This document shows, piece by piece, positions 1,604 to 21,679 of a DNA stretch of 22,009 nucleotides. The DNA is taken from IMG/VR virus record IMGVR_UViG_3300028925_001363, positions 1 to 22,009 of that record. One strand, 5' to 3'. Position 1 is the stretch's first letter. Every line of letters starts with the position of its first letter. The translations under genes were made by a program, and so were the position numbers. Under the pieces are notes generated by a model. That model saw nothing but the letters and a program-made list of their open reading frames with translations. It was not told the origin of the DNA and ran no database searches. Source of the stretch: a virus.

Positions 1604-1631
1604 ATTATACACTATTATTCACCGAAGTCAC
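1604..1631 (-). promoter_or_regulatory. Possible sigma70-like promoter before the fiber gene
   Basis: On the minus strand a perfect TATAAT (1604-1609) lies 16 bp after GTGACT (1626-1631, 4 of 6 matches to TTGACA). The 37-nt gap between the last internal virion protein and the fiber gene is one of few true gaps in the module, which makes a separate fiber transcript plausible. The -35 lies inside the end of the upstream gene. Such AT-rich matches arise easily by chance. Confidence 0.3.
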
Positions 1632-4600
1632 TACCTTTTATTACTGTTTTTGCTAATGGATCATATATTTTTCTAAACAAGTCTTTTGTATAGAACAGAT
1701 TATTAAATGGAGTCGCCCTTCTTAGTACTCCAACTCTGTTTGCTTGAGAATTTTCAGTAAGGAATGAATGAGCTAGACCCATCATCAAACCACCAGAAGC
1801 TCCCAATGGTTCTGATATTGCATCTGCTAAATTCTCTTTACCAAATCTACCTTTAACACCAAGCAAAGGTCTTAAACCTACATTACCCATTGTTAGATTT
1901 TCTATATTGAAAGACAGATCAGACATCACACCCAACACACCTGATATTTCTATTGCTCTAATAAATCTTTCCTCATCACTCATTGCCATGAATCTGTCGT
2001 GTGGTGTTTTCATATACAAAGATATACCACCCATGAACAGCATAGACATTAAGCCACCAACAAAGTTTTTATCCTTACCAGACATACCTGCCATTACAAC
2101 TTTTCTGTTTGCTGATACACCCCAACTCATAAACTGCATTGGTAAAGCAAGTAAAGCATTATTCATAGAGCCACCATCTTGTCCTTTTTTATAACCCAAT
2201 TTTCTACCTACAGCATTATTCCAGAAAGCATTACCTTTAGGACTATTGATCCTGCTTTGTCCGTGCATAATATTTAGTTGATCTACTATATGTGGTGTAA
2301 CAATAGCTCTGTCTGTTTCTGCATACAAGGCTTCTTGAAATTTAATAGACGCATTTTCTCCACCTTTTTTAGATAACCACTTATCTACATTGGCTAACCT
2401 CATACCATCAACTTCTTCCCAAGGCATACGAGCTATAGTTTTTGCAGTAGTTTCATCTATACCCATAGATGCCATTCTGTTTATAGTATGCCTAGAAGCT
2501 TTACCTTTTGACATATTGATAGCATCATTAAGTATTTCTTGATGACCTATAACAGCTTCAAAGTCTTTCATTTTCTGAGTCCAAGGAGTTAAACCATTGA
2601 CTACAAACCATGAAGGCTGTAGTTCGTTAAGTTTATTTAAAGCTTTACCAAACAAACCTGTACCTCTATTAGAGGGTGTTATTTGTCCTGCCTCTACCAT
2701 AAATCTTTTCTTTGCCATACCAAGTTCAGTATCTATTGTAGCTCCTAAGCCTTTGTTTTGTTTTAAAGCTTTTAAATAAGCTATTCTATTATTACCAAAT
2801 GCTTGTCTAAATACTTGACCTGCTACTTTTTGTAATCCATGAACCATAACTGGTCTAGCTACATCAACTACTGCTGAATACACAACACGTCCCATCATAG
2901 TTGTACTTGCTATATTCATTAAACCCTCAGCAACTTTCTTTGATCTTGCAGAAGAATCTTGTAGATTAATAGTACCTGTCATCTTACCTTTTTCATCTGT
3001 AAAGGCATTAATGATTCTGTTATATTTTGTCATATCTTTTGTTGATTTGATTTCACCTGTTAACAGTTTAATTCTAGCATCAACTGTCCAATTAGACATA
3101 TTAGCATCACCAAATCTTTTGGCAATCTCTATAGCTGTACCAGCTCTTTGAGTATATTGTCTCATAATAACTGATGAGTCTAGTTCTATAAAATCTTCAA
3201 CACCATTGTATTGTTTTGTTAACATCTTGTTAGGTATGTTAAGATTTCTGCTCATAAATTGTTTTGCACCATAAGTAACATTGCCTTCATCATCTAATGC
3301 TTTACCAAGTATACCTTCTATATCATCTGATTCTACAGTAAGAATATGATTATAAACTTTCCTTGCTCTTTTCATAGTTTCAGTTTTAGAAGAAGACAGT
3401 TGAGTTATCTCACCAGTTTCTTTGTTTATTACATTCTTTCTACCAATAGGACTTTGAAAGAAATCTGATAACATATTAATAAACACAGTTTTATTAGCAA
3501 TGATAGCATCTTTATTATATACCCTTGGTAAATACTTTTCTTTGTTGTGTATATTTAAACCCTTTAATTGACTTTCTTTTGCTAGGTCACCAAGTTGTGT
3601 ATCCAAGTCTTTTATAAGAGCTTTTTCGCTATCCAGTATTTCGTTTAACTTACCTTTTTGAAAAGCATTTAACTCAGTATCACTAGCCAATGTTTTTTCT
3701 AGATCATCTATGATTGTTTGTTTAGCAAGTTTAAAATTAGTAACAGATGTTTTGTTATTTGATATACCATACAGGTCCATATCTTTACCTGTTTTTTCAA
3801 AGTATGCTGTCATCTCATCTGCTTGTTGTCTAACATACTTATTGGTAGTAGCATAAAAAGTATCATCTGAAATAGCTCTAGAAATATCTGCTCTAAACTC
3901 AGCTACAGATTGACCCTCAGTTTTACCTTTAAAGTCACTTATTCTTAGTTTGTTTTTGGTTTGGTTAAATGAAGCAAGATAAGTAGATTCTTCGTCGTCC
4001 ATTCTAAATCTAACCCATGCTTCATCATTGTTTCTAAGAATATTAGCTAATGGTATTTCATGGTTTCTTCTTATAGCAAGGGCTACAGAACTCTTTGTAG
4101 CTCCACCAGCTCTGTTAACTTCAGACATAGTTGAATGATCACCACTAAGAGCTATCATAGATTCTTGCATATACCTACCAACTTTAGTATTTTTAAATAC
4201 TCCGTTAGCTGTTACTTTACCAGCATTAGTAAGTTTTTCTAAATTGTTAAATGCTTTAGAGAAGATATTACTTCTGGCTAATGAACCTTTTGATGCTTCT
4301 TTTTGAAATTCTCTATAAGCTAAGTCTAATGTTCTTAACTCAAAATCTCTTTCTGATTCTATAAATTCTCCTGTTGTTCTACTTACTTTTCTACCTTCAC
4401 CTTGAACTTCAGTGATGAATAATTGTTTTACTTTAAGTTGTTGGTAGTTTTCAAATGAACCAATTCTGTTTCTCATGTTAGGAGTTTCATTATTCCAATC
4501 ATCTAACAGTTTTTTTGAATTGATTTTAATTGTAGGTTTAGATGTTTTAGTGGCTTTGTTAAATCCTATAGATTTTTTAAACCTGTTACTTATTTTTTCA

Positions 4601-5685
4601 ACTGAACCAGTAACATCATTAATAAACTTATAAGTCCACAATGGTGTTGCATCAGTTTCTTCTATTAATCTAAAAGCATCATCATATAGTACAGCTAGTC
4701 TTTCTGCTTTGTTTGGGTACATACCTGTGAAAGTAGGTGAGTTCATAAAAGGTTGCTGTAATTCTGGTTCTGTGTAAGACCATTGTTTGGTATTGGGGTT
4801 TTGTGTAAATCTTTTATTAACCATTGCTTTACCAGTTTTAACAGTTTTAGCTCCTACCATACCACCCATTAAACCACCCATCAAACCACCTATACCTAGT
4901 AGCATAGCTGATTCTTGCCATGTAGAATTGTAATCATATTTGCGTCTTAGGTATTCGTTTGGAGACATAGCTCCAGCTGTTATCGCACCAGACTTACCTG
5001 CACGTCTAGCAAAACTTGAACCTCTCATTAAAGTTCTAGTCAATTTCATAGTTGTAGAACCTAATAAACCTAACCCAGAAAACGTACCAATTAACATTGA
5101 TGGATCACCAATAGCACCACCCACCATTCTAGCCATAAGTCTATCACCTCTAGCTAATCTTTCTTCTTTACGATTAACTCTATCTATACCAACTTTGATT
5201 GCGTCCATATGTTTTTCGTTTATAACATCACCAAAATCATTGACATATGCTTCATACCCTGCAAGGTTTTCTTTTGTATAAGGGTTAAAACTTTGATCAT
5301 AACCAGCTTCTCTATAACCTGATGCTATATTATCTTGTTCTTGAGCTAACCATAATTGTATACCTTCCATAGAAAAAGATGTACCAACATCTTCCCAGAA
5401 CGTTTGGTCTCTACCTGTAAATTCAAATTCACCATTGTTAGGTTTATAGTCCGACCACTTGTTACCTAGTGCTAATTTCTTACGACCAGCTTCTTGTTCT
5501 TGTTCTCTAGTCAATTGACTCTTTACAGGAACGTGATCGTTTTGTAATACAGCACGTAATTCATCACCACGAATCTGTTTATTTTTTTCGTTAGTTACCT
5601 TTAGTTGATCTGTGATATCTTTATTGGCTAAATGTTTTTTAGTCAAGTCACCCCAGTCATTAAACAACCCAGCATGTTTTACCAT
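1615..5685 (-). CDS. Internal virion protein D-like (T7 gp16 position), ejection protein
   Basis: A 1356-residue protein in the place and size class of T7 gp16 (1318 residues), the largest internal core protein, which is ejected into the host envelope to help carry DNA across. The sequence is mostly polar and helical. Two Gly/Met-rich hydrophobic stretches stand out at about 187-210 (GGAIGDPSMLIGTFSGLGLL) and 260-279 (AMLLGIGGLMGGLMGGMVGA). A third hydrophobic region lies near the C-terminus (about 1180-1225: ALLALPMQFMSW and GGLMSMLFMGGISLYM). These could insert into membrane. I see no lytic transglycosylase (SLT) motif at the N-terminus, where T7 gp16 has one. The ATG follows AAGGT with a 7-nt spacer and lies 1 nt after the preceding stop codon. 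Function is assigned by size, order and composition, not by a domain match. Confidence 0.7.
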   Translation of the reverse strand: MVKHAGLFNDWGDLTKKHLANKDITDQLKVTNEKNKQIRGDELRAVLQNDHVPVKSQLTREQEQEAGRKKLALGNKWSDYKPNNGEFEFTGRDQTFWEDVGTSFSMEGIQLWLAQEQDNIASGYREAGYDQSFNPYTKENLAGYEAYVNDFGDVINEKHMDAIKVGIDRVNRKEERLARGDRLMARMVGGAIGDPSMLIGTFSGLGLLGSTTMKLTRTLMRGSSFARRAGKSGAITAGAMSPNEYLRRKYDYNSTWQESAMLLGIGGLMGGLMGGMVGAKTVKTGKAMVNKRFTQNPNTKQWSYTEPELQQPFMNSPTFTGMYPNKAERLAVLYDDAFRLIEETDATPLWTYKFINDVTGSVEKISNRFKKSIGFNKATKTSKPTIKINSKKLLDDWNNETPNMRNRIGSFENYQQLKVKQLFITEVQGEGRKVSRTTGEFIESERDFELRTLDLAYREFQKEASKGSLARSNIFSKAFNNLEKLTNAGKVTANGVFKNTKVGRYMQESMIALSGDHSTMSEVNRAGGATKSSVALAIRRNHEIPLANILRNNDEAWVRFRMDDEESTYLASFNQTKNKLRISDFKGKTEGQSVAEFRADISRAISDDTFYATTNKYVRQQADEMTAYFEKTGKDMDLYGISNNKTSVTNFKLAKQTIIDDLEKTLASDTELNAFQKGKLNEILDSEKALIKDLDTQLGDLAKESQLKGLNIHNKEKYLPRVYNKDAIIANKTVFINMLSDFFQSPIGRKNVINKETGEITQLSSSKTETMKRARKVYNHILTVESDDIEGILGKALDDEGNVTYGAKQFMSRNLNIPNKMLTKQYNGVEDFIELDSSVIMRQYTQRAGTAIEIAKRFGDANMSNWTVDARIKLLTGEIKSTKDMTKYNRIINAFTDEKGKMTGTINLQDSSARSKKVAEGLMNIASTTMMGRVVYSAVVDVARPVMVHGLQKVAGQVFRQAFGNNRIAYLKALKQNKGLGATIDTELGMAKKRFMVEAGQITPSNRGTGLFGKALNKLNELQPSWFVVNGLTPWTQKMKDFEAVIGHQEILNDAINMSKGKASRHTINRMASMGIDETTAKTIARMPWEEVDGMRLANVDKWLSKKGGENASIKFQEALYAETDRAIVTPHIVDQLNIMHGQSRINSPKGNAFWNNAVGRKLGYKKGQDGGSMNNALLALPMQFMSWGVSANRKVVMAGMSGKDKNFVGGLMSMLFMGGISLYMKTPHDRFMAMSDEERFIRAIEISGVLGVMSDLSFNIENLTMGNVGLRPLLGVKGRFGKENLADAISEPLGASGGLMMGLAHSFLTENSQANRVGVLRRATPFNNLFYTKDLFRKIYDPLAKTVIKGSDFGE

Positions 5686-8182: not shown

Positions 8183-8668
8183 TTAAAATGTTTCATCAAA
8201 TGTTGATTTAGCTCTTATAAGATTTCTGCTAACTGTAGAGAATACATCAGCTTTAGTATGTTTAGCAGACTTCTTACTCATTAAAGCTTGATCTCTACTG
8301 TACATACTATTCATTCTGTTCTCAATACCTGCTAATGCTATAGCTCCCATATCATCTTTCATTGTATTTTGATTAGCTTGCATTAAAGCTCTGAATGATG
8401 CACTGTTAGAAGATACACCTGTAGTACTCATTAAAGCTCTGTTAGTTGAAACTGTTTGGAAGTACTGTCTTTTTCTTTCTAGTTCAGTTGCATTGGCTTC
8501 AAGTATAGCTCTTTGTGCTTGATCTTCGTATTGATCTGCTTGAGATTGTAGACGTTGTTGTTCATACTTTGCACTCTGTTTTTGTGCGCGTACTTGCATT
8601 ACAGTACCTATCCCTTGAGAAATCATAGAGAAGATACCCAATAATTGAGGTGTTAGAAATCCAAACAT
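8183..8668 (-). CDS. Internal virion protein B-like (T7 gp14 position)
   Basis: A 161-residue protein. A hydrophobic N-terminal segment (residues 1-25, FGFLTPQLLGIFSMISQGIG) is followed by a long Gln/Glu/Arg-rich helix with coiled-coil character (about 27-75, with QSAKYEQQRLQSQADQYEDQ). The middle part (TVSTNRALMSTTGVSSNSAS) is typical of T7 gp14-like and related podovirus ejection proteins. T7 gp14 (196 residues) sits at the portal end of the core and is placed in the host outer membrane on infection. The ATG overlaps the stop of tail tubular B as TAATG, so translation is probably coupled. The family call is good from pattern and position. Confidence 0.8.
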   Translation of the reverse strand: MFGFLTPQLLGIFSMISQGIGTVMQVRAQKQSAKYEQQRLQSQADQYEDQAQRAILEANATELERKRQYFQTVSTNRALMSTTGVSSNSASFRALMQANQNTMKDDMGAIALAGIENRMNSMYSRDQALMSKKSAKHTKADVFSTVSRNLIRAKSTFDETF

Positions 8669-13284: not shown

Positions 13285-13311
13285 ACTAAGTTATCCAGAG
13301 TTGGACTTAGT
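13285..13311 (-). other. Bulged hairpin overlapping the stop codon upstream of capsid
   Basis: ACTAAG (13285-13290) pairs with CTTAGT (13306-13311), and TCCA (13294-13297) with TGGA (13302-13305), around a GAGT loop with a 3-nt bulge. It overlaps the stop codon of the gp13-like gene and is not followed by a U-tract on either strand. It could mark an mRNA end or a processing site upstream of the capsid message. It is modest in size. Confidence 0.35.
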
Positions 13312-13804
13312 CTTTCTGTTCAAGGTTGTAACTTCTATAGAAGTACACCATTTCTACACCTTTGACAAGCACTGATTTAGAATTAAATTCAAAACCTAGC
13401 CAACGTAGCCATTTGATTGACTTTTCTTGATGTATTGATATGTAGTTTGAAACGTAGTTATGGTCAACTTGTATCAAATTGAGCCATTTCTTGTTTACTC
13501 TTATAATATCTCTGTAATATGTATCCATTAAATCAGAACCTAATAGCCATATAATACCATGATTCCACTCAGGTCTTTCCATAGCATCATTAACCAGAAC
13601 AACACCAAACATACATACTATATTGTTGTCTTGATCTACTGCTGTGTAATTATGTTTGATGTCGAATGGTGATTGGAACGGAGCAAGTAATCCTTCTAAT
13701 GGAGTCATACCCCATAGGATACATTCATATCTATCTTCTTGTTTTAAATATGGTGCTAACTGATAAGCATCATCTGGTATAGAGTTTCTTACGTATAATG
13801 GTAT
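13307..13804 (-). CDS. T7 gp13/DUF2833-like protein with GNAT-like fold, apparent AUA start
   Basis: The frame from the first ATG (13708) gives 133 residues, but conserved sequence continues upstream in frame: PLYVRNSIPDDAYQLAPYL, then KQEDRYECILWGMTPLEGLL, the usual N-terminus of DUF2833 and GNAT-like phage proteins. The next in-frame stop is at 13817-13819, and no ATG, GTG or TTG lies between it and the conserved part. An AUA at 13802-13804 lies 8 nt after a perfect AGGAG (TAAGGAG), so I place the start there (165 residues). Later family landmarks are GIIWLLGSDLM (about 83-93) and SIKWLRWLGFEF (about 129-140). T7 gp13 is a virion-morphogenesis factor of 138 residues; whether this protein acetylates anything is unknown. 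It overlaps the membrane-protein gene by 35 nt. The family call is fairly firm; the AUA start is inferred. Confidence 0.65.
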   Translation of the reverse strand: MPLYVRNSIPDDAYQLAPYLKQEDRYECILWGMTPLEGLLAPFQSPFDIKHNYTAVDQDNNIVCMFGVVLVNDAMERPEWNHGIIWLLGSDLMDTYYRDIIRVNKKWLNLIQVDHNYVSNYISIHQEKSIKWLRWLGFEFNSKSVLVKGVEMVYFYRSYNLEQKD

Positions 13805-17856: not shown

Positions 17857-19362
17857 TTATCTTCTTCTTTCATATATGTTGTTAGGTTTGACACTGAATA
17901 CGTCAAATGCCCTTTTAGCTACTACAGGTTTAGCAGAAGTTCTGCCTACTGTCAAGTTCCTTCCTTCACCTGCACCCAATAAAAGATATTGAAACGCATC
18001 ATGAATATGTGAGAACCTATTTTTATTTGGACGTTCGTCATATCTTTCGCCACTTACCTGCATACGTCTGTAGTGATATCCACCAGCAAAACCTCTAATT
18101 AAATTTTTACACTTAGGGTCTATAATGATACCTGTTTCTCCATCAGTTAGTCTTGTTAGTACAGATGTTACAGATTCTAATCTTGTTACGACATCATTAC
18201 TTGGTGCTGGTCTAGCAAATAAACCTTTAGCTCTTAGTATTTGGAAGGGTGTTGTCTCATCTGTTTGTACTCTTTGATCACCAGCAGGGTCACCAAATAT
18301 AATAAACTCCCTCGGTAACCATTGAGCCATATGTGATTTCATTAATTCACCAAACCTAACGATACCCATATCTTCTGCAACCAATTCATCAAGGACAACC
18401 CATCTACCTCTTACTCTTTGAGCAAAGACACAGGCAGGAGTTAATCCAAAATCAAGTCCAACAAAGATAGGAGACCCTAATATAGGAGTTAAATCTCCCT
18501 TGGCTACGTGTAAATCGTGTCTGAATGATTCATATACAGGCTTATCATCTGATACTTCACCCAATTTGTTTAATACATAGACATCTATCCATGACTTTGT
18601 CTTACCTCTAATGATATTGGGATAATAGTTCTTTGTTAGATGTTTCTGGTTCTCAACTTCAGGGTTCATTTCGTATCCGTTAATGACACGTTTTTCGTCT
18701 CTAGTTTCTAACATAGCTGGGGCTTGATTCCAGAATGACCAATTATCAGGACGGACTAACATCTTGCTTTCTTGTTTACTCATATAATCAGGAAGCATTG
18801 CTTCGCCAGACATGATCGACCACCAATGATCTACATCTGGTGGGTTGGTATCGCATATAACTCCGTACCAACTTGGACCACCTTCTCTCATACTTGGATA
18901 TCTACCGACCCTCATGGTACAAGCATCAACAATAGACTTAGGAATTTCTCTTGCTTCGTTAATCCAGACACCAGTTAGTTCAAGTGACAATAGTTTCTTA
19001 ACATCTTCTGGTCTATCCAATGCTAGGAACACAACTTCAAGTTCTATCTCACCCTTCTTTATCATATGAGTGAATGGTACAGACCAATGAAACCTTCCCC
19101 AATCTTCTTCTGGAAACCAATCCAACCAAGTTTTAATTGTTGTTGTTTTTAATTGTGGGTTGGTATTACGAATGACTGCCCATCTGGATTTTCTTTTTCC
19201 ATCAGGTGTTAGTTTCTGTTGCAATGCTCTGCGCATTATTTCAATACAACAGCCAACAGACTTACCACTACCAACAGGTCCACGCAATCCTCTAAAGAAA
19301 CTTTCGTCTTTTAAAAATTCCTTTAATGTACTGCCATCAGGCTTATAGCTCAGAGATGCCAT
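17857..19362 (-). CDS. Terminase large subunit (packaging ATPase and nuclease)
   Basis: A 501-residue protein from the ATG at 19362; an in-frame TTG at 19368 would add two residues. The ATPase domain shows a Walker A at about 28-35 (GPVGSGKS) and a Walker B at about 129-140 (LTGVWINEAREI, with E136 as the likely catalytic acid). The nuclease domain shows three acidic sites: D304 (FVGLDFGLTPA), D358 (FGDPAGDQR) and D455 (FSHIHDAFQYLL). All expected catalytic residues are present. It should pump DNA into the procapsid through the portal and cut the concatemer. It overlaps the preceding small gene by 20 nt and precedes the portal region. In T7 the equivalent gene lies at the far end of the structural block. 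Confidence 0.96.
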   Translation of the reverse strand: MASLSYKPDGSTLKEFLKDESFFRGLRGPVGSGKSVGCCIEIMRRALQQKLTPDGKRKSRWAVIRNTNPQLKTTTIKTWLDWFPEEDWGRFHWSVPFTHMIKKGEIELEVVFLALDRPEDVKKLLSLELTGVWINEAREIPKSIVDACTMRVGRYPSMREGGPSWYGVICDTNPPDVDHWWSIMSGEAMLPDYMSKQESKMLVRPDNWSFWNQAPAMLETRDEKRVINGYEMNPEVENQKHLTKNYYPNIIRGKTKSWIDVYVLNKLGEVSDDKPVYESFRHDLHVAKGDLTPILGSPIFVGLDFGLTPACVFAQRVRGRWVVLDELVAEDMGIVRFGELMKSHMAQWLPREFIIFGDPAGDQRVQTDETTPFQILRAKGLFARPAPSNDVVTRLESVTSVLTRLTDGETGIIIDPKCKNLIRGFAGGYHYRRMQVSGERYDERPNKNRFSHIHDAFQYLLLGAGEGRNLTVGRTSAKPVVAKRAFDVFSVKPNNIYERRR

Positions 19363-19540
19363 AGTCAACTGCTAATTTTATTAATTCATTCTGTGCTTGT
19401 TCACTCATAGCTTCTATGATTCTGTCTGCTTCCATATCTGTACACAGTTCAGTAGGATATGCTTTCATATGTTGACTTCTAACAAGAACTCTTAACTTGG
19501 TTAAGTCTTTGATCATAACTTTTCTAAATATATTACTCAT
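19343..19540 (-). CDS. Small conserved-looking protein upstream of the large terminase
   Basis: A 65-residue protein (SNIFRKVMIKDLTKLRVLVR, then SQHMKAYPTELCTDMEADRI). It is helical, and the C-terminal half (EADRIIEAMSEQAQNELIKL) looks like a small protein-interaction helix pair. An internal ATG at codon 9 would give a 57-residue form. I do not recognise a characterised family. It starts with an 8-nt overlap (ATGAGTAA) with the preceding gene and overlaps the large terminase by 20 nt, so it is translated with both. The location suggests a packaging-related accessory, but this is context only. Confidence 0.65.
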   Translation of the reverse strand: MSNIFRKVMIKDLTKLRVLVRSQHMKAYPTELCTDMEADRIIEAMSEQAQNELIKLAVDYGISEL

Positions 19541-19826
19541 CTTTTAACCTGTCTCTAAACATAGCCTTAGCCATATTGTTAGCAGTCTTGATATCATGAC
19601 CTTTTAATACTTTGCGTTCTACGTAATCTTGGAATTGTTTAGTCGCATGTCTATCTTTTTCTCTCTGCTCGTTACCAAGCATAATGATAGCTCTAGCTTC
19701 TGCCTTCTGGAGTTTTGTTCTTTGCGCCAAGGGTGGTCGGTTTTGTTTGAACGAGTGTATTGCGACTTTTTCTAACTTCTCTTGCTTCGTCGTGGTTTTT
19801 TTTGGAGTCATTTCTTCCGCTTTCAT
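19533..19826 (-). CDS. Small basic helical protein, unknown; N-terminus uncertain
   Basis: A 97-residue, strongly charged and mostly helical protein (KQEKLEKVAIHSFKQNRP, then TKLQKAEARAIIMLGNEQRE and NNMAKAMFRDRLKDE). No family was recognised. The start is unclear: the ATG at 19826 lacks a ribosome binding site and the ATG at 19811 has GGAAG too close to it. A different frame opens at 19851 with a TAATG junction to the preceding gene (MAHQLNSTYESGRNDSKK) and meets this frame at a run of eight A (19796-19803), one base out of phase. A frameshift, or an extra A in the sequence, would join them into a longer protein. The 3' end overlaps the next gene by 8 nt. Confidence 0.6.
   Translation of the reverse strand: MKAEEMTPKKTTTKQEKLEKVAIHSFKQNRPPLAQRTKLQKAEARAIIMLGNEQREKDRHATKQFQDYVERKVLKGHDIKTANNMAKAMFRDRLKDE
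19796..19803 (-). other. A8 homopolymer run near the start of the small basic gene
   Basis: The transcribed-sense strand reads CC followed by eight A at this place. Two open frames meet here: one starting at 19851 and one running to 19533. They differ by one base, such that a +1 slip or a seven-A run would fuse them. It may be a slippage site or a base-count error. Confidence 0.4.
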
Positions 19827-19850: not shown

Positions 19851-20024
19851 TTAATTTAATAATCCTTTATCTTCTAATTCAAAAATGATCCCTTCGTCTT
19901 CGGCTGTAAACAATTCTGCATAAGCTTTTAAAGCTTCTTCTTGGTCTTTTATTATCTTAACGAGTGTAGCATAACTACTGACAAGGACATCAAAATCCTT
20001 TTGTAGTTGTGCTTTAGTTTTCAT
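19851..20024 (-). CDS. Small acidic protein coupled to the repeat protein gene
   Basis: A 57-residue gene reading MKTKAQLQKDFDVLVSSYAT and ending in FELEDKGLLN. It is helical, with a basic start and an acidic second half (EELALKAY-like helix, then AEDEGIIFELED). The ATG overlaps the stop of the repeat protein as ATGA, a classic coupled junction, and its own stop shares TAATG with a possible downstream start at 19851. The codon use looks like that of the neighbours. No family was recognised. The short length and junctions on both sides make a real gene likely; a small packaging or regulatory partner is only a guess. Confidence 0.65.
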   Translation of the reverse strand: MKTKAQLQKDFDVLVSSYATLVKIIKDQEEALKAYAELFTAEDEGIIFELEDKGLLN

Positions 20025-21106
20025 CTGTAGTTCTTGTACTTAGAGTTCTTCTTACGTGTAGCAGTTGTTTGTTTTAGCATAGATATATTACTACCGACAG
20101 TTCTGTGTTTAATATTCAGATTGTTATCAGCCAATGCTTCGGCTACATAATCTTTTGTTTTACCTGCAGTAAAGTCTTTGTTAACTTTCCTTACTTCTGT
20201 TGGTTGTTTATAATTTGTAGATGCAGTTGTAATACTTGGATCACCTGTGGCTAATCGTGGTTGTGTTGTACTAGTCTTAGGTTTAATACCAAAGTAAGAA
20301 GTTATCTTAGCCATAAGGCTGTTGTCTTGTTGTATATAAGTCTTTAAGGACTTAGGCTTAGCGTTAACTTTGTCTGTTACATTCTGTGAAGGATTAAAGA
20401 ACTTAGGGTGCTTGCTTCTACCGAATATAGCATTCTTGTCTTTTCTATCATGACCAGCAGAGTTCAGGAAAGAACCGAGCGGAACACCAACATCATCTTT
20501 TCTTACAGAAGAAGGTCTTGCTCTTTTAGCTCTATCGGATATCTTGTCTGCTCTATCAGCACCTCTTGTATTAAATGAACCCAGCGGTGTACCGACATCA
20601 TCTTTTCTTTTCTGTGATACTGCTAACTTACCACCATCAACTCTATCATGTCCACCTGATTTCATGAAACTTGCGGAACGTATGGAGAAATCAACACCAG
20701 CATTTGTCTTGTTTTTCATTAATGATCTAGGTTTCTTAGTAGGAAGTCCTATAAGCTTAGGCTTAACATTGTCATGACCACCTACGTTAAAGTTACCCTT
20801 AGGTGTTCCAACATCATCTTTTCTTTTCTTAACAACATCTGTCTTTGCTAGAAAAGGTGAGGACAATAGATTAGACATAGCCGTATTCATTGACTTAGTC
20901 TTAGGTTTAACCAGTGCGTTTAATGTTGTTATATTACTTTCTTTGATGGAAGGTGTGTTCTGTCTAGTCCAGTTGTTATCTGTACGTTTCTTCCAATCGG
21001 AATCCTTCTTACCAAGGTTAGAATTGTCGCCTACTTTGTAAGTAGAGTTAGGTCCGTAGTTCTTTGCAACTCGTTTAGCGATCTTAAATAATGTAAATAT
21101 TCCCAT
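20021..21106 (-). CDS. Unrecognised basic repeat protein between the terminase genes
   Basis: A 361-residue, Lys/Arg/Asn-rich protein with little hydrophobic core. It opens with a short amphipathic helix (MGIFTLFKIAKRVAKNYG). The central part has three good copies of a motif of about 22 residues: KRKDDVGTPKGNFNVGGHDN (about 94-113), KRKDDVGTPLGSFNTRGADR (166-185) and RKDDVGVPLGSFLNSAGHDR (202-221). A degenerate copy at about 138-157 keeps SFMKSGGHDRVD. The rest is low-complexity, basic and probably disordered, with a KKNSKYKNYR end. I do not recognise a family. High charge suggests nucleic-acid or scaffold binding. The ATG has AAAGGA with a 7-nt spacer and follows a possible promoter. It lies between the small and large terminase genes and is coupled to the next gene. 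Confidence 0.7.
   Translation of the reverse strand: MGIFTLFKIAKRVAKNYGPNSTYKVGDNSNLGKKDSDWKKRTDNNWTRQNTPSIKESNITTLNALVKPKTKSMNTAMSNLLSSPFLAKTDVVKKRKDDVGTPKGNFNVGGHDNVKPKLIGLPTKKPRSLMKNKTNAGVDFSIRSASFMKSGGHDRVDGGKLAVSQKRKDDVGTPLGSFNTRGADRADKISDRAKRARPSSVRKDDVGVPLGSFLNSAGHDRKDKNAIFGRSKHPKFFNPSQNVTDKVNAKPKSLKTYIQQDNSLMAKITSYFGIKPKTSTTQPRLATGDPSITTASTNYKQPTEVRKVNKDFTAGKTKDYVAEALADNNLNIKHRTVGSNISMLKQTTATRKKNSKYKNYR
20435..20827 (-). repeat. Imperfect coding repeats of the RKDDVGTPxGSF..GGHDRxD type
   Basis: The copies lie at 20762-20827, 20543-20611 and 20435-20503, with a degenerate one at 20636-20695. DNA identity is visible in the shared stretch CATCATCTTTTCTT (plus strand) inside the three good copies. 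The spacing is uneven, so they are dispersed, not tandem, and were kept at the protein level. Confidence 0.75.
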
Positions 21107-21265: not shown

Positions 21266-21679
21266 TCAGCTCAAATCGATCTTAACCTTAAAGTCACCCA
21301 GTACTTGCGATTGAATCTGAGTTACAGGTGCAAAGCCAGCCCTATCTAATATATCCTGCGAAGCTTGCAATTTGACGAACTCTGATCGCGCCGTATCACT
21401 CAATGTCTCTATGTTATGTAATGCCTTGGGCGCTTGTAAGCTATACTTACTGTACATCTTTTCTTTTAGATAGGCTTTAGCCGATAATGTTGAAAGAGAA
21501 CTATACGCATTCTGTCTGCCTGCTTCACCAATCCAACCTTGATCTAAGGCTACTTCTTGAACTGATTTACCTGTGCTGACAAGTCCCTCTATAAGGTCTC
21601 TAACCTTGCTAGAAAGTTTTACTTCCTTACCAGACTCTAATTTGATTGTTACTTCTTTAGTTATCCTGTTCTTTGTCAT
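21266..21679 (-). CDS. Terminase small subunit-like DNA-recognition protein
   Basis: A 137-residue protein. A probable helix-turn-helix lies at about 38-65 (GKSVQEVALDQGWIGEAGRQ). A long helical region with APKALHNIETLSD follows. The C-terminal segment FVKLQASQDILDRAGFAPVT and the final beta-like VKIDLS are the usual ending of many phage small terminases. It should bind the packaging start site and recruit the large subunit. Three small genes and a large unknown gene separate it from the large subunit, which is unusual, though order is kept. AAAGG lies 8 nt before the ATG. It is the first gene after the strongest promoter candidate in the window. Confidence 0.75.
   Translation of the reverse strand: MTKNRITKEVTIKLESGKEVKLSSKVRDLIEGLVSTGKSVQEVALDQGWIGEAGRQNAYSSLSTLSAKAYLKEKMYSKYSLQAPKALHNIETLSDTARSEFVKLQASQDILDRAGFAPVTQIQSQVLGDFKVKIDLS

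What the first reader, a model, noticed from the sequence alone, without database searches (positions are those of the whole stretch)
20021..21106. Basic repeat protein of unknown family between the terminase genes
Seen: a 361-residue Lys/Arg-rich protein carries three good and one degenerate copies of a motif around RKDDVGTPxGSF..GGHDRxD. It sits between the small and large terminase genes, starts with its own promoter-like sequence, and is coupled to a new 57-residue gene. Known podovirus modules usually have the two terminase genes close together. Inference: it may be a DNA- or RNA-binding packaging accessory, or a protein packed with the DNA.
Basis: partly seen in the sequence, partly recalled or inferred. 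Interest (0 to 1): 0.55.

Follow-up and report, generated by a model that had tools for sequence, protein, structure and literature searches.

The report
Swappable lysine-rich gene between terminases
A marine phage related to a phage of the ocean bacterium Pelagibacter carries, between its two DNA-packaging genes, a lysine-rich unstructured repeat protein in a slot where related phages carry different but similarly built proteins, which may be a docking place for exchangeable proteins that travel inside the virus.

Summary
The gene is real: 361 aa, net charge +44, no cysteine, three near-exact RKDDVGxPxGxF repeats (best self-match 84; maximum 66 in 1000 shuffles). It matches no family in Pfam, PHROGs, NCBIfam, PADLOC or PDB, and AlphaFold2 without an alignment finds no fold. 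Its place is not odd, however. The window belongs to a clade around Pelagibacter phage Hodr (TerL 77%). There, 56 non-redundant TerS-TerL intervals span 217-4204 bp and hold lysine-rich genes; all 32 interval ORFs of 180 aa or more lack cysteine, against 3 of 131 control ORFs. Close relatives with 92-95% identical flanks carry different genes in this slot. Pairs of slot proteins often share only the N-terminus: 45 share N but not C, 0 the reverse; controls 10 and 58. ORF361 shares such a stretch with its L002/L003 counterpart, with diverged codons. The best analogy is T4 internal proteins (targeting tag plus variable basic body). Virion packaging, DNA binding and the tag's role are inferred, not shown. 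The 57-aa neighbour is not new; the promoter claim is unsupported.

The parts
21266..21679 (-). Terminase small subunit, 137 aa, a divergent member
   Evidence: PHROG 2538 E 4.8e-11; joins the clade's iterated TerS profile; no relative by pattern scan of IMG/VR
20021..21106 (-). ORF361, lysine-rich Cys-free repeat protein, occupant of the variable slot
   Evidence: no family match
21056..21100 (-). Predicted N-terminal amphipathic helix, aa 3-17, modest confidence
   Evidence: AlphaFold2 single sequence, block pLDDT 62-66
20972..21040 (-). Shared N-terminal stretch (putative tag) YKVGDNxNLGKKxxxWxxRxxNN, aa 23-45
   Evidence: L002/L003 315-aa protein, phmmer E 0.0013 and 0.00043; 8 of 15 identical residues with different codons
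20789..20824 (-). Repeat 1 core, aa 95-106
20723..20752 (-). IGLPTKKPRS, aa 119-128, shared with a 115-aa ORF of L003
   Evidence: phmmer E 0.00058; 8 of 10 codons identical
20636..20692 (-). Degenerate repeat ending GGHDRVD, aa 139-157
   Evidence: self-alignment to aa 205-223, score 49
20573..20608 (-). Repeat 2 core, aa 167-178
20468..20503 (-). Repeat 3 core, aa 202-213
19851..20024 (-). 57-aa acidic small protein, ATGA overlap with ORF361; family in 17 of 82 loci
19533..19826 (-). 97-aa basic protein; related ORF in 41 of 42 TerS-TerL intervals
19343..19540 (-). 65-aa protein overlapping the TerL start; related ORF in 42 of 42 intervals
17857..19362 (-). Terminase large subunit (ATG at 19362; the tool lists a TTG start at 19368)
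   Evidence: PHROG 2 E 1.1e-20; Hodr 77%

Best explanation
ORF361 is the current occupant of an exchangeable slot between TerS and TerL in a Hodr-like pelagiphage clade. Shown by sequence: (1) the slot is normal for this clade and holds lysine-rich, cysteine-free, weakly conserved proteins; (2) occupants are swapped as cassettes between close relatives; (3) pairs of occupants often share a short N-terminal stretch and nothing detectable beyond it. Inferred: the N-terminal stretch is a docking or targeting tag for a common phage component (scaffold, portal or terminase complex). Through it the positively charged, disordered body, with its RKDDVG..GHDRxD repeats, is loaded with the DNA; there it neutralises DNA charge or is delivered into the host at infection, and the body diverges in a host arms race. 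This would work like T4 internal proteins (conserved capsid-targeting sequence plus diverse basic body); descent from them is not claimed.
For: 56 non-redundant intervals: 258 of 368 ORFs have pI above 9.5 and K+R averages 23.3%, against 5 of 131 and 10.4% for control ORFs downstream of TerL; 32 of 32 interval ORFs of 180 aa or more lack Cys, against 3 of 131. L002 and L005: flanks 92% and 95% identical in DNA, no match across the slot where L002 has its 315-aa protein. N/C asymmetry: 55 pairs share the first 60 aa, 10 the last 60, N-not-C 45, C-not-N 0; control proteins 10 and 58; shuffled N-termini gave 0 pairs in 20 trials. 45 tag-profile hits lie upstream of TerL and 0 elsewhere in loci with a located TerL; 9 more are in records without one, copies of the window and of L002 among them. 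Window/L002 tag: 8 of 15 identical residues use different codons, pointing to selection on the protein. Paralogues with the same tag occur inside single islands: L008 (two), L161 (two). The gene is on the same strand and in the same run as TerS, TerL, portal, capsid and tail genes. T4 internal proteins: CTS plus diverse set, lysine contacts to DNA (passages of PMC3012670; PMC9026906).
Against: No virion proteomics, DNA-binding or expression data for any island protein. ORF361's own tag has only one independent counterpart (L002 and L003 are 99.85% identical over their shared 4.8 kb) and borderline E-values. L004 keeps the C-terminal half of the L002 protein with another N-terminus, the opposite of the tag rule; it lacks TerS and so was outside the 56. 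41 of the 55 N-pairs come from one 12-member group. Five of the 32 long ORFs are acidic. Canonical internal virion proteins are encoded elsewhere in the window, so this gene is not needed for that role. No prohead protease was seen among the window proteins searched, so T4-style tag cleavage is unlikely.
Confidence: 0.42

Rival explanations
1. Packaging accessory that is not in the virion: the basic protein helps TerS/TerL grip or condense DNA, and the N-terminal stretch docks on the terminase.
For: Lies between the terminase genes, with two conserved small genes before TerL; net charge +44; the clade keeps lysine-rich proteins in the slot.
Against: Bodies are hypervariable and swapped while the 2.1-kb stretch with the start of TerL stays 95% identical in DNA; distant relatives have adjacent terminase genes without such proteins; L067 has only 217 bp between the terminases.
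Confidence: 0.22
2. Intracellular accessory (anti-defence or host takeover) protein made in the infected cell and not carried in the virion; the slot is an ordinary accessory-gene hotspot.
For: Cassette exchange between close relatives and absence of sequence relatives are typical of accessory loci (general knowledge).
Against: No match to defence models; every long occupant is Cys-free and most are lysine-rich, an unusual constraint for a mixed accessory locus; the position is in the structural/packaging gene run.
Confidence: 0.22
3. Low-constraint ORFan: a recently born or decaying low-complexity gene with little function, kept by hitch-hiking.
For: Disordered, low-complexity composition and internal repeats; no homologue of the whole protein.
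Against: Shared N-terminus with diverged codons in window/L002 and in most pairs of the large group; long lysine-rich Cys-free ORFs in 32 of 56 intervals.
Confidence: 0.12

Closest known systems
T4 internal proteins (IPI, IPII, IPIII)
   Same: Short shared N-terminus with unrelated basic bodies; variable between related phages; members of one phage share the N-terminus (passages)
   Different: No sequence relationship shown; no prohead protease seen among the window proteins searched; packaging not shown; here the slot is between TerS and TerL of a podovirus
Pelagibacter phage EXVC031P Hodr TerS-TerL island
   Same: Same TerL type (77%), same conserved small genes before TerL, basic small proteins between the terminases
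   Different: Hodr carries DUF6321 and a 132-aa basic protein in place of an ORF361-like protein
DUF6321 (PF19846)
   Same: Lysine-rich, found in this slot in many relatives; C-terminal part of a lysine-rich protein annotated as structural near TerS in cyanophage S-E7
   Different: ORF361 has no match to it
Podovirus internal virion (ejection) proteins
   Same: Virion proteins delivered with DNA, the role proposed here (general knowledge)
   Different: The window's own members lie elsewhere: 8183-8668, 13307-13708, 1615-5685; ORF361 does not match them

Membership tests
T4 internal proteins | Short conserved N-terminal targeting sequence with diverse bodies | tested here: inconclusive
   Pattern present across the island class (45 vs 0), with a counterexample in L004; targeting itself not tested
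T4 internal proteins | Basic body | tested here: met
   Net +44, pI 10.4
T4 internal proteins | Cleavage by a prohead protease | tested here: inconclusive
   No protease family among the window proteins searched; not all window ORFs were searched and the record is incomplete
T4 internal proteins | Presence in the virion | not testable with these tools
   No proteomics of this clade found
T4 internal proteins | Sequence homology | tested here: not met
   No PHROGs or Pfam match
Hodr-clade TerS-TerL island proteins (class defined here) | Located between TerS and TerL of this clade | tested here: met
Hodr-clade TerS-TerL island proteins (class defined here) | Lysine-rich and Cys-free | tested here: met
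   K+R 20%, 0 Cys
Hodr-clade TerS-TerL island proteins (class defined here) | N-terminal stretch shared with another island protein | tested here: met
   With L002, BLAST E below 1e-3 on the first 60 aa; one independent partner only
DUF6321 | PF19846 match above cutoff | tested here: not met
   0 Pfam families
Known anti-phage defence proteins | PADLOC model match | tested here: not met
   0 families for ORF361

The most novel reading that the evidence does not exclude
The TerS-TerL interval of this pelagiphage clade is a cargo dock: short interchangeable N-terminal tags load a fast-evolving repertoire of lysine-rich, cysteine-free disordered proteins into the capsid with the genome, a podovirus counterpart of the T4 internal-protein system that would also help explain why terminase genes keep appearing in marine metaviromic islands.
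Probability: 0.3. Interest if true: 0.75.

Novelty: new variant of a known kind. Interest (0 to 1): 0.5.

Why it matters
Pelagiphages are held to be among the most abundant viruses in the ocean (general knowledge). If the N-terminal stretches target proteins into the capsid, they would mark a reservoir of unknown proteins delivered into SAR11 bacteria and a way to load cargo into a small podovirus. It would also give a concrete reason for the terminase genes that a metaviromic-island study found under-recruiting without explanation (passages of PMC3909814). The prediction is directly testable with the cultured relative Hodr.

Tried and rejected
Homologue searches with ORF361: tblastn in phage records, pattern-based scans of IMG/VR and of GTDB genomes: none. 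A DNA pattern for KDDVGxPxG in IMG/VR gave 10 stretches, each with a single match; I did not inspect these ten further. The window's TerS as query gave no IMG/VR relative, so Hodr's TerS was used. The IGLPTKKPR pattern gave 5 stretches, of which only L003 was examined.

RNA-level explanation: no Rfam match in window, L002, L005 or L082. A DNA-level site (pac/cos) as the cause of the shared N-terminus was considered and set aside because synonymous sites have drifted. No fold search was run: a model with pLDDT 48 would give meaningless matches. The GHDRxD resemblance in the L002 protein (AGNDRLD) is not significant (conditional E 0.04-0.1). Three other island proteins gave no phage match by tblastn.

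Rows dropped before counts: interval statistics use 56 of 91 loci with TerS and TerL in order (35 dropped for sharing half or more of their 15-mers with a kept one), out of 152 records. The N/C test uses 46 of 58 interval ORFs of 140 aa or more; 12 were dropped for K+R below 17% or for having Cys. The control sets differ: one search has 131 ORFs of 180 aa or more with open-ended ones included, one search has 112 closed ORFs of 140 aa or more. output was cut; its content was recomputed. Interval lengths are measured to the codon of the seventh residue of the 503-aa TerL ORF.

Literature: section 26 and other passages of PMC3037559; passages only of PMC3012670, PMC9026906 and PMC3909814; all other papers only as search listings. 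That the island was not found described rests, in an open-access library only.

Full report
THE GENE. The ORF at 20021-21106 (-) is a real gene by frame, start site and codon pattern. Its product has 361 residues, net charge +44, pI 10.4 and no Cys, and lies on the disordered side of the charge-hydropathy boundary (H 0.398 against 0.457). AlphaFold2 without an alignment gives mean pLDDT 48 and a short N-terminal helix (aa 3-17) at modest confidence. A single-sequence model is weak evidence for disorder, but the composition agrees. The repeats are far beyond chance (for the DNA pattern).

NO KNOWN FAMILY. ORF361 matches nothing in PHROGs, Pfam, PADLOC, NCBIfam or PDB sequences. No relative came from tblastn in 50,697 phage records or from pattern-based scans of IMG/VR and GTDB genomes. 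Those scans start from short peptides and find close relatives only.

WHICH PHAGE. TerL is 77% identical to that of Pelagibacter phage EXVC031P Hodr and 43% or less to the other phages listed. The window carries a podovirus module: head-tail connector, metallophosphoesterase, major capsid, tail proteins and internal virion proteins. The record is 22 kb and incomplete.

THE PLACE IS NORMAL FOR THE CLADE. Eighty IMG/VR loci with TerL 74-83% identical were fetched. With Hodr and the window, 42 of 82 loci contain TerS upstream of TerL, at 216-4203 bp (window 1915 bp); in the other 40 no TerS was found, often because the contig ends. Adding 70 further loci from a TerS scan, 91 of 152 records have TerS and TerL in order; after redundancy removal 56 intervals remain, 217-4204 bp, median 2492. 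In more distant phages the genes are adjacent or nearly so: BcepC6B and Pmp11; in Ss1 an unnamed gene precedes TerL; MEP301 has three small ORFs between them. The 3' part of the interval is conserved: relatives of the 97-aa ORF in 41 of 42 intervals and of the 65-aa ORF in 42 of 42. The 57-aa family is patchy (17 of 82 loci, 5 of 42 full intervals).

WHAT FILLS THE SLOT. In the 56 intervals, 258 of 368 ORFs have pI above 9.5 and mean K+R is 23.3%; control ORFs of 180 aa or more downstream of TerL give 5 of 131 and 10.4%. Of 32 interval ORFs of 180 aa or more, 32 lack cysteine, against 3 of 131 controls. Twenty-seven of these 32 are net positive and five acidic. One recurrent small gene is DUF6321. 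In cyanophage S-E7, DUF6321 is the C-terminal part of a lysine-rich protein annotated as structural, two genes after TerS. That annotation is a lead only: the virion proteomics section that I read names no such protein (PMC3037559).

CASSETTE EXCHANGE. L002 and L005 are 92% identical over the DUF6321 gene and 95% over 2148 bp from the 57-aa family gene into TerL, with no DNA match in between, where L002 has a 315-aa lysine-rich protein and L005 two small ORFs. ORF361 sits in that same position. L004 shares the C-terminal half of the L002 protein but not its N-terminus.

SHARED N-TERMINI. Among 46 long, lysine-rich, Cys-free island proteins (of 58 of 140 aa or more), 55 pairs share their first 60 residues and 10 their last 60; 45 share N but not C and none the reverse. 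Control proteins of the same loci show 10 and 58, and shuffled N-termini give no pair in 20 trials. There are 8 groups, but 41 of the 55 pairs fall in one group of 12, so the pairs are not independent. In loci where TerL was located, all 45 tag-profile hits lie upstream of it. ORF361 shares YKVGDNxNLGKKxxxWxxRxxNN with L002/L003. The match is short and borderline (E 0.0004 to 0.0013), but it lies in the same slot of the closest TerL relatives, and the DNA pattern for its core occurs in IMG/VR only in those two contigs. Of 15 identical residues 8 have different codons, so the likeness is kept by selection on the protein rather than by recent copying. By contrast IGLPTKKPRS, shared with a 115-aa ORF in L003, has 8 of 10 identical codons, which looks like recent exchange. 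L003 is 99.85% identical to L002 over 4.8 kb but differs upstream, so an assembly chimera cannot be excluded there.

HOW IT MOST LIKELY WORKS. A short docking sequence plus a variable basic body is the design of T4 internal proteins, described as a highly diverse set sharing only a capsid targeting sequence (passages of PMC3012670; PMC9026906). I propose that island proteins are loaded with the DNA through their N-termini, the body binding DNA by charge and perhaps acting after ejection. Nothing here shows packaging, DNA binding or the partner of the tag. A packaging aid outside the virion, an intracellular accessory protein and a low-constraint ORFan remain open.

LINK TO EARLIER WORK. A study of marine metaviromic islands lists TerS (10) and TerL (6) among frequent island genes and calls the reason obscure (passages of PMC3909814). 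A hypervariable TerS-TerL slot could account for part of this; I did not test their contigs.

Noticed in passing
L082:7407, also L002, L005, L027, L029, L031, L035, L041, L049, about 96-337 bp after TerS: A conserved non-coding element, AAGGTTCGTTCAA followed by an AT-rich stretch, precedes the first island gene in 9 of 42 intervals and is absent from the window. Possibly a promoter; it also resembles a tRNA T-loop.
   Followed up: partly
L003:1-1843: L003 joins a region unlike L002 (very acidic and coiled ORFs, no TerS found) to a 4.8-kb stretch 99.85% identical to L002; recombinant or assembly chimera.
   Followed up: no
L082:8431-8829: A 132-aa basic protein (PHROGs 14910 and 17747) is shared, whole or by halves, by Hodr, HTVC034P, HTVC103P, Lederberg, HMO-2011 and Roseobacter CRP phages, in different genome places.
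   Followed up: partly
L162, L173, L174, L177, L178 (TerS-TerL interval): A subset of intervals carries an acidic 258-289-aa ORF with a shared N-terminal motif instead of a long basic protein.
   Followed up: no
window:15238-15972 (-): Metallophosphoesterase gene (PHROG 221 E 9.6e-66, PF00149) next to the portal gene, inside the structural module.
   Followed up: no
window:3-1577 (-): Fibre-like ORF with several tandem NVTTVAGISA-type repeats, cut by the window end.
   Followed up: no
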